Of a DNA stretch of 64,000 nt, positions 43,469 to 45,579 are shown piece after piece; position 1 is the stretch's first letter; every line of letters starts with the position of its first letter. Origin of the DNA: Ilumatobacter coccineus YM16-304. GTDB lineage: Bacteria > Actinomycetota > Acidimicrobiia > Acidimicrobiales > Ilumatobacteraceae. The notes beneath the pieces were generated by a model. That model had not been told where the DNA came from. It made no database searches and saw only the letters and a program-made list of their open reading frames with translations. A program made the translations under genes and the position numbers. The stretch covers positions 1,550,001 through 1,614,000 of the forward strand of contig NC_020520.1 in the NCBI RefSeq assembly GCF_000348785.1, read 5' to 3'.

Positions 43469-44437
43469 ATGAGCGACTCGGGGACGGATTGGTTGACGGC
43501 GGCCCGGGTCATGGTGGTCGCCGGCAAGGGCGGCGTCGGATCGTCGACCGTGGCGGCAGCCGCTGCGTGGGCAGCGGCTCGCGACGGCGCCGACGTCATG
43601 TTCATCTCGGTCGACGGGAGACCCGGCATGGGCACGCTGCTCGGCGGACGCGAGATCAACGACCGAGAGCAGACCCTGCAACGCTTCGACGGCGGCGGCA
43701 AGATCCGAGCCCGCACGATCCCCGCCGACCAGGCGTTCGGCGACTACCTCGAACTCAAAGGCGTCGGCGGGCTCCTTCGTCGTGCGGCCTCGGCCGCATC
43801 GCTCCCGATGATCGCCGCGGCCACCCCCGGCCTCGAACACCTGCTCGTGCTCGGAAAGATCAAGGAGATCGAACGCAACCGTGAGGCAGACCTCGTCGTC
43901 GTCGACGCCCCACCCGCCGGCCACGCGGCACCGTTCCTGCGGTCGGCGTCGGGGCTCTCCGACGTGGTCAAATCCGGTCCGGTCCTCGACCAGGCGCGAG
44001 AGGTGTCGGAGATGCTCGCCGACGTCGAACGTTGTCGAGCCCTGCTCGTCGCGCTCCCCGAAGAGACACCGATCACCGAACTGATCGAACTCGCCCGCGA
44101 CCTCGGCGACGACCTCGGCCTGGCGCTGCACCCGCTCGTCGTCAACGGTTGCTGGCCCGACCGACCCGGCCTCGCCAAGTCGCCGGCGATGGCAGCGCGG
44201 ACGCACAAGCTCAAACTGTCGGGCGACGCGAAGCGAGCGCTCGAGTCGGCTGCGGCGTTCGGCCGAAGTCGGCTCGAACAGCAACACGAGCAACTCGATC
44301 GGCTGCGGGCAGCTCGCGACGAACCGGTCATCACGCTGCCTCGGCTGCCGACGCCGACCCTCGGCCTCGACGAGATCGTCGAGTTGGCCGATGCGCTGAT
44401 CGACCCGGTCAATCTCACGACGGAGACGGCGAAATGA
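43469..44437 (+). CDS. Get3/ArsA-like ATPase, A subunit, P-loop lysine missing
   Basis: 322-residue deviant Walker A (ArsA/Get3) ATPase-like protein. The nucleotide loop reads GKGGVGSST: the signature Lys20 is kept, but the P-loop lysine (GKT/S position) is replaced by Ser25. Other elements remain: switch-like ISVDGRPGMG and the Walker B-type strand LVVVDAPPAGHA. It probably binds ATP poorly by itself. Its stop overlaps the ATG of a second ATPase with the reverse defect, suggesting an obligate heterodimer. Actinobacteria such as mycobacteria carry a similar adjacent pair (Rv3679/Rv3680), as I recall. Confidence 0.85.
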   Translation: MSDSGTDWLTAARVMVVAGKGGVGSSTVAAAAAWAAARDGADVMFISVDGRPGMGTLLGGREINDREQTLQRFDGGGKIRARTIPADQAFGDYLELKGVGGLLRRAASAASLPMIAAATPGLEHLLVLGKIKEIERNREADLVVVDAPPAGHAAPFLRSASGLSDVVKSGPVLDQAREVSEMLADVERCRALLVALPEETPITELIELARDLGDDLGLALHPLVVNGCWPDRPGLAKSPAMAARTHKLKLSGDAKRALESAAAFGRSRLEQQHEQLDRLRAARDEPVITLPRLPTPTLGLDEIVELADALIDPVNLTTETAK

Positions 44438-45579
44438 GCAAGCGATCGAGCACCGCAGCCGAACTCACCGTCGCCGGTGCCATCGCCCGCTCCGAGCTGA
44501 TTCTCACCTGCGGACCCGGTGGGGTGGGCAAGACCACCACCGCCGCAGCGCTGGGCGTGGCCGCAGCTCGCGCCGGTCGACGCACGGTGGTGGTCACCGT
44601 CGACCCGGCTCGCCGGCTCGCCGACGCCCTCGGGCTCGAAGCCGGGGCAGCTGCCGACGAGCCACACAAGGTCGCCGGGGTCACCAAGCGATCGACCGAC
44701 GGCGAACTCTTCGCGCTGATGCTCGACGCCGAGCAGACCTTCGACCGGCTCGTCCGCGACCAGGCGGGCAGCCGCAAACAAGCCGACGCCATCCTCAACA
44801 ACCCCGTCTACCAGGCGATTTCCGGGTCGTTGTCGGGCGCGCAGGAGTACATGGCGATCGAACGGCTGCATCAGTTGCACACCAGTGGCGACTGGGATCT
44901 CGTCATCGTCGACACGCCGCCGTCGCGTCACGCGATCGACCTGCTCGACGCACCCGATCGACTCGTCGGATTCCTCAGCCATCCGGTGTATCGCGCGCTC
45001 ACGGTCGGTCAGCGCACGTTCGCCAAGATCACCGATGCGGCATCGTCGATGTTTCTCTGGGCGGTCAAACGCCTCGCCGGGCCGCAGATCGTCGAAGACA
45101 CCGTGCAGTTCTTCCGCTCGCTCGCGAACATCGAAGGTGGCCTGCGCGACCGAGCCAAGGAGGTGTCGAAGCTGCTGCGTTCCGACGCGACCGCGTTCAT
45201 CGTCGTGTCGAGTCCGCGGTCCGAAGCTGTCGGTGAGGCCGAACACCTCCTCGACGCCATCGACGAGAAGCACTTCCCGCTGGCCGGCGTGGTCGTCAAC
45301 CTGATCCATCCGCTACCCGAACCGCTCGGCGAGGCCGTCGAAGCCGAACTCGCCGACATGGGCGAAGGGCCACTGGTCGACCACCTCGAGTGGCACCGCG
45401 AACTGACCAGACTCGCGGAGGCCGAACGATCTCAGATCGCCGAGCTCGAACGGCTCAGCGGACATGCCGAACTGATCGAACTGCCACTGCTCGACGTCGA
45501 CATCCACGACATTCCCGGACTCGTCGGCCTGAGCGATCGGCTCGTCGACCCCGCCGACCGCCGAGGAGAGGCGCACTGA
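44434..45579 (+). CDS. Get3/ArsA-like ATPase, B subunit, signature lysine missing
   Basis: 381-residue ArsA/Get3-type ATPase. The loop reads CGPGGVGKTTT: P-loop Lys33 with Thr34-Thr35 is intact, while the signature lysine position is Pro28. Switch I VVTVDPARRLADAL and the strand LVIVDTPPSRHAIDLLDAP are well conserved. A long helical region (about 170-260) may form a client or membrane-facing surface. Eukaryotic Get3 delivers tail-anchored proteins and ArsA drives arsenite export, but no arsenic genes are nearby. It is translationally coupled to the A subunit (ATGA). Confidence 0.88.
   Translation: MSKRSSTAAELTVAGAIARSELILTCGPGGVGKTTTAAALGVAAARAGRRTVVVTVDPARRLADALGLEAGAAADEPHKVAGVTKRSTDGELFALMLDAEQTFDRLVRDQAGSRKQADAILNNPVYQAISGSLSGAQEYMAIERLHQLHTSGDWDLVIVDTPPSRHAIDLLDAPDRLVGFLSHPVYRALTVGQRTFAKITDAASSMFLWAVKRLAGPQIVEDTVQFFRSLANIEGGLRDRAKEVSKLLRSDATAFIVVSSPRSEAVGEAEHLLDAIDEKHFPLAGVVVNLIHPLPEPLGEAVEAELADMGEGPLVDHLEWHRELTRLAEAERSQIAELERLSGHAELIELPLLDVDIHDIPGLVGLSDRLVDPADRRGEAH

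What the first reader, a model, noticed from the sequence alone, without database searches (positions are those of the whole stretch)
43469..45579. Get3/ArsA-like pair with complementary loss of the two nucleotide-binding lysines
In this ATPase class each subunit normally has a signature lysine (GK) that reaches across the dimer and a P-loop lysine (GK[TS]). Here the A subunit keeps the signature Lys20 but has Ser25 in place of the P-loop lysine. The B subunit keeps P-loop Lys33 but has Pro28 in place of the signature lysine. The genes overlap by four bases. This predicts a forced heterodimer with one working ATP site: B binds ATP and A supplies the trans-acting lysine. Mycobacteria have an adjacent Get3-like pair (Rv3679/Rv3680), as I recall, but the extra P-loop loss in A may be lineage-specific.
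Basis: partly seen in the sequence, partly recalled or inferred. Interest (0 to 1): 0.65.

Follow-up and report, generated by a model that had tools for sequence, protein, structure and literature searches.

The report
Paired ATPases sharing one ATP site
Two neighbouring bacterial genes encode partner ATPases, related to a known mycobacterial pair, in which one partner has lost the lysine that grips ATP and appears only to lend a finishing lysine to the other, so the pair probably runs on one shared ATP site instead of two.

Summary
Gene A (43469-44437) reads GKGGVGSST (Lys20, Ser25); gene B (44434-45579) reads GPGGVGKTT (Pro28, Lys33); they overlap by ATGA. Both belong to the Get3-like BagA/BagB type (Rv3679/Rv3680, PDB 6BS3-5). 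B's missing signature lysine is not a local loss: in 155 aligned Actinomycetota pairs no B has it, while A's signature Lys, B's P-loop Lys and B's switch I Asp are invariant. A's own P-loop Lys is dispensable. It is Ser or Thr in all 33 readable relatives of this A, a monophyletic extra paralogue confined to part of the window's family, and Arg in four further A proteins. A mirror search for B proteins without the P-loop Lys found none in the same 395 genomes. The gene is under purifying selection. Best reading: an A:B heterodimer with one composite catalytic site (B binds ATP, A supplies Lys20 in trans); A's site lost its trans lysine first, then its P-loop lysine, and its surroundings were rebuilt and fixed. 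TadZ and McdA show that such lysines can be replaced, so loss of hydrolysis at A is inferred, not shown. The genome holds two more, ordinary pairs. New variant of a known kind.

The parts
43469..44437 (+). gene A: BagA-like Get3/ArsA-fold protein, 322 aa
   Evidence: AlphaFold model pLDDT 93, closest solved chain 6bs3_A (Z 29.4)
43526..43528 (+). codon AAG, Lys20 of A: signature (trans-acting) lysine, retained
   Evidence: sequence; 155/155 A proteins
43541..43543 (+). codon TCG, Ser25 of A, in place of the P-loop lysine
   Evidence: sequence; Ser/Thr in 33/33 orthologues, Lys or Arg in all other A proteins
43838..43840 (+). codon CAC, His124 of A: fixed in the window-type clade, Asp/Glu in all others
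   Evidence: 33/33 versus 0/122
44434..44437 (+). ATGA overlap of A stop and B start (translational coupling expected)
   Evidence: sequence; ATGA or GTGA in 30/33 orthologous pairs
44434..45579 (+). gene B: BagB-like Get3/ArsA-fold ATPase, 381 aa, proposed catalytic subunit
   Evidence: AlphaFold model pLDDT 83, closest solved chain 6bs3_B (Z 31.8)
44515..44517 (+). codon CCC, Pro28 of B, in place of the signature lysine
   Evidence: sequence; never Lys in 155 B proteins (Ser, Ala, Pro, Thr, Gly)
44530..44532 (+). codon AAG, Lys33 of B: P-loop lysine, retained
   Evidence: 155/155; switch I Asp57 and D160-T-P-P also 155/155

Best explanation
A and B form a Bag-type (bacterial Get3-like) heterodimer with a single composite catalytic ATP site. 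B holds the nucleotide with its complete P-loop (Lys33), switch I (Asp57) and switch II (Asp160); A completes the site from across the interface with its signature Lys20. The opposite site, in A, is non-catalytic: it first lost the trans lysine (B has none, a state shared by all Bag pairs sampled), and in this lineage A then lost its own P-loop lysine, with neighbouring residues rebuilt and fixed. Shown here: the residues, their conservation pattern, monophyly, purifying selection and family membership. Inferred: heterodimer formation in this organism, Lys20 reaching B's site, absence of hydrolysis at A, and any role in handling hydrophobic or tail-anchored clients.
For: Of four lysine positions in 155 aligned pairs, exactly the two that build the B-site are invariant (A Lys20, B Lys33); B signature is never Lys and A P-loop is S/T/R in 36 (regex survey of 159 pairs). 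B's switch I (D57, P58, A59, R61) and switch II (D160-T-P-P) are 155/155, while A's switch I acid is Asp or Glu in most and Ala in 9. 76 further named pairs have A with both lysines and B without the signature one. Three separate losses of the A P-loop Lys on the tree, with L077 as a further case not placed on it; the mirror search for B with a lost P-loop Lys gave no B-type hit in the same 395 genomes in which the A-type pattern gave 11 Bag hits. The solved Mtb relative is a complex of A and B chains, titled ADP-bound. Purifying selection on both genes. Known role of the two lysines in Get3: PMC10248533.
Against: No complex was modelled and no assay done. TadZ of Eubacterium rectale is reported to keep ATPase activity without both lysines, with a lysine from a neighbouring helix compensating (PMC10482377); McdA lacks the signature lysine yet is very active (PMC6328274); Nostoc Get3d with Arg at the P-loop position is active (PMC10248533). 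So neither loss strictly proves a dead site. Three A/B pairs per genome allow cross-pairing. There are few independent events, and the loci with Arg were found with a pattern that required the A signature Lys.
Confidence: 0.7

Rival explanations
1. A still binds ATP or ADP firmly but does not hydrolyse it: a structural or regulatory nucleotide site, as in asymmetric heterodimeric ATPases. The Ser/Thr replacement keeps the glycine loop and the Mg-binding Ser/Thr26. (Compatible with one catalytic site; differs in what A's pocket holds.)
For: The glycine loop, Ser/Thr26, Asp49, Asp146 and Asn226 (aligned with the base-binding Asn) are all kept in the window-type A. Substitution is only to Ser or Thr, not random. 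The entry title of the Mtb complex says ADP-bound.
Against: Which subunit holds ADP in 6BS3 was not read; residues fixed around the pocket (His124, Cys228, Trp229, Arg292) could equally block a nucleotide.
Confidence: 0.4
2. Both sites remain active because another basic residue takes over the P-loop lysine role in A, as reported for TadZ.
For: Basic residues specific to the window-type A exist: Lys97, Arg244, Lys255, Arg292; TadZ precedent.
Against: None of these lies in the helix that follows the P-loop, and A's site would still lack B's trans lysine. Lys97 lies in the region expected to bind clients.
Confidence: 0.1
3. B works as a homodimer without any signature lysine, as McdA does, and A is a regulator.
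For: McdA lacks the signature Lys and is highly active; B's own catalytic residues are invariant.
Against: A's signature Lys is invariant in 155/155 pairs, which a pure regulator would not need; the genes are coupled by overlap in 30/33; the Mtb relative crystallised as A plus B.
Confidence: 0.12
4. A is a decaying gene and the lysine loss is drift.
For: The catalytic lysine is missing; most genomes also carry another A-type gene (31 of 35).
Against: dN/dS 0.02-0.16, Ser/Thr fixed in 33/33, open frames throughout and coupling in 30/33.
Confidence: 0.03

Closest known systems
Mycobacterium tuberculosis BagA/BagB (Rv3679/Rv3680; PDB 6BS3-6BS5; NCBIfam NF053622, NF053621)
   Same: Adjacent A then B genes, same folds (Z 29.4 and 31.8), A keeps the signature Lys, B keeps the P-loop Lys and lacks the signature Lys.
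   Different: Mtb BagA keeps its P-loop Lys (GKGGTGKST); window A has Ser there plus other fixed changes. Window proteins score well under the NCBIfam equivalog cut-offs (130 vs 400; 318 vs 521 bits). In this genome the best BagB scorer is another pair, which lies near a WhiB gene.
Eukaryotic and archaeal Get3/TRC40
   Same: Fold, intradimeric Walker A, switch motifs in B.
   Different: Get3 is a homodimer with two complete sites; here the two halves are separate, unequal genes; no CXXC zinc motif.
ArsA arsenite pump ATPase
   Same: Fold and Pfam PF02374.
   Different: ArsA is one chain with two halves and arsenite-binding cysteines; A has two Cys, B one, and none of the neighbouring genes scanned is a pump gene.
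TadZ and McdA, ParA/MinD-type ATPases lacking one or both lysines
   Same: Natural loss of deviant Walker A lysines.
   Different: Different families, and not known to me to split the two losses between two partner genes.

Membership tests
Get3/ArsA superfamily (PF02374) | PF02374 match over cut-off | tested here: met
   A 64.6 and B 94 bits against a cut-off of 24.3
Get3/ArsA superfamily (PF02374) | Intradimeric Walker A with both lysines in one chain | tested here: not met
   A has only Lys20, B only Lys33
BagA/BagB pair type | Tandem A-B gene order with best match to BagA and BagB | tested here: met
   Best NCBIfam hits NF053622 and NF053621; best solved chains 6bs3_A and 6bs3_B
BagA/BagB pair type | B keeps P-loop Lys and lacks signature Lys; A keeps signature Lys | tested here: met
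   155/155 pairs including this one
BagA/BagB pair type | A keeps the P-loop Lys | tested here: not met
   Ser25; Ser/Thr in all 33 orthologues
BagA/BagB equivalog of mycobacteria | Score over NCBIfam equivalog cut-off | tested here: not met
   129.8 < 400 and 317.7 < 521 bits
Get3 tail-anchored protein targeting factor | Binds tail-anchored clients | not testable with these tools
   needs experiment
Get3 tail-anchored protein targeting factor | CXXC zinc motif at the dimer interface | tested here: not met
   no CXXC in A or B; the motif is also missing in Get3d (PMC10248533)

The most novel reading that the evidence does not exclude
The A pocket has not merely lost catalysis but has been rebuilt into a fixed, different binding or sensing site (Ser/Thr25, Asp/Glu to His124, Cys228-Trp229 beside the base-binding Asn, Arg292), so that this paralogous pair is a one-ATP machine with a second, non-ATP ligand or regulatory site in its dead half.
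Probability: 0.2. Interest if true: 0.65.

Novelty: new variant of a known kind. Interest (0 to 1): 0.45.

Why it matters
Get3-type ATPases are understood as symmetric dimers with two sites. The Bag pairs, common in Actinomycetota (BagB-like match in 165 of 396 genomes sampled), look asymmetric throughout, with one complete site. The window lineage is a natural separation-of-function case: evolution removed the second site's P-loop lysine and kept the protein. That makes a simple question testable: does a Get3-like machine need one or two ATP hydrolyses per cycle?

Tried and rejected
Sequencing error or pseudogene: rejected (33/33 orthologues, dN/dS). A functional link to neighbours (ribonucleotide reductase, HMG-CoA-lyase-like, beta-lactamase-like, LPG-synthase-TM): neighbours are shared mainly in the nearest genera, the A-B pair alone is shared more widely. 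Other proteins with GKGGxG[ST] in the phylum (L289, L292, L293, L295) score only weakly with the Bag A profile; by eye they look MinD/CpaE-like and ArsA-like. Most other loci of the pattern search are chance matches. L242, apparently without a P-loop, is a frameshift in the record. A compensating lysine in the P-loop helix: none specific to the clade. Papers on BagA/BagB are not in the library held, so whether the asymmetry was already noted there is not known.

Full report
The observation. Gene A is 43469-44437 and gene B 44434-45579, both on the + strand, overlapping by ATGA. A reads GKGGVGSST with Lys20 and Ser25; B reads GPGGVGKTT with Pro28 and Lys33.

What they are. Both match PF02374. 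The nearest named families are BagA and BagB of Mycobacterium tuberculosis (Rv3679/Rv3680), by NCBIfam, by solved sequences and by fold: AlphaFold models of A (pLDDT 93) and B (pLDDT 83) match 6bs3_A (Z 29.4) and 6bs3_B (Z 31.8) best. Both fall well under the equivalog cut-offs, so they are relatives, not the mycobacterial equivalogs.

Three pairs in one genome. The window's genome (4,830,181 bases, one contig; from memory this size is that of Ilumatobacter coccineus YM16-304, not verified) holds three A-B pairs. Pair 2 (4309071-4310996, minus) and pair 3 (1099077 to about 1101200, plus) have the usual GKGGVGKTT in A and GSGGVGKTT in B. Pair 2 has the best BagB score of the three and lies near a WhiB gene, as the mycobacterial pair lies next to whiB4 (from memory).

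The four lysine positions. I collected 159 distinct tandem pairs across Actinomycetota and aligned 155, Mtb included. A signature Lys: 155/155. B P-loop Lys: 155/155. B signature Lys: 0/155. A P-loop: Lys 119, Ser 28, Thr 5, Arg 3 (a fourth Arg case, L077, is in the survey but not in the alignment). B's switch I (Asp57-Pro-Ala, Arg61) and switch II (Asp160-Thr-Pro-Pro) are invariant, while A's switch I acid is Glu, Asp or Ala. Seventy-six further pairs from named records all have A with both lysines and B without the signature lysine, though that scan's pattern partly selects for the B P-loop. So the two residues that would build one composite site (B's pocket plus A's trans lysine) are fixed, and the two that would build the other are not.

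The loss in A. Window-type A proteins form one clade (SH-aLRT 100, stem 0.94 changes per site, P-loop excluded from the tree) within the pairs of the window's class and relatives. They occur in 35 of 221 genomes of the family, 33 readable at the P-loop; 31 of the 35 also carry another A-type gene at E <= 1e-30. All have Ser or Thr at the P-loop position and Pro in B. Losses to Arg occur in L077, L078 and L091/L092; on the tree, which lacks L077, the K/not-K change count is three. The mirror search for B proteins that had lost the P-loop lysine gave hits in 15 of the same 395 genomes, none a Bag protein. Limits: the Arg cases were found with a pattern that demanded the A signature lysine, and the number of independent events is small.

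Decay or rebuilding. dN/dS of A is as low as that of B, 0.02-0.16. Besides Ser/Thr25, the clade has fixed His124 (Asp/Glu in all 122 others), Cys228-Trp229 beside the conserved Asn226, and Arg292 near the C-terminal loop. The glycine loop, Ser/Thr26, Asp49 and Asp146 are kept. This looks like a rebuilt pocket under selection, not erosion. That these residues line the nucleotide pocket is inferred from alignment to Get3, not measured.

Mechanism. In Get3 the P-loop lysine contacts the beta-phosphate in its own subunit and the signature lysine reaches across the dimer to assist catalysis (PMC10248533). The conservation pattern fits an A:B heterodimer in which B is the catalytic subunit and A Lys20 completes its site. 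A's own site lost its trans lysine when B lost the signature lysine (shared by every Bag pair sampled) and, in this clade, lost the P-loop lysine too. Caveats: TadZ and McdA remain active without such lysines, and Nostoc Get3d is active with Arg. Therefore the absence of hydrolysis at A, and the need for heterodimers, are inferences. What the pair does for the cell is unknown; the family suggests handling of hydrophobic or tail-anchored proteins, which is a lead only.

Neighbourhood. Upstream lie ribonucleotide reductase and an HMG-CoA-lyase-like gene, downstream beta-lactamase-like, LPG-synthase-TM and MaoC genes. They are shared mainly with the nearest genera, whereas A-B alone is shared further, so the neighbours do not explain the function.

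Verdict. The residue observation is right, the composite-site reading is the best supported, but one half of the 'complementary loss' is shared by the whole family. New variant of a known kind.

Noticed in passing
G000 pair 3, locus L106:8954-11100, next to L106:11123-12640: A third, ordinary Get3-like pair lies directly upstream of a PdtaS-type histidine kinase (GAF_PdtaS, HisKA_2).
   Followed up: partly
L237:3974-5110: A Solirubrobacteraceae contig carries a B-like protein (GSGGVGKTT, no signature lysine) with no recognisable A gene on the 9 kb locus; it could test whether a B can work alone.
   Followed up: no
L295 (minus strand, ORF of 817 aa): An ArsA-like protein with GKGGAGTST, apparently another natural loss of the P-loop lysine outside the Bag pairs.
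   Followed up: no
L261, L229: Bag-type pairs on contigs labelled Desulfobacteraceae and Bifidobacterium breve MAGs; contamination or transfer not resolved.
   Followed up: no
L105:12248-15284: Selenocysteine genes SelA and SelB lie near pair 2 and WhiB in the window's genome.
   Followed up: no
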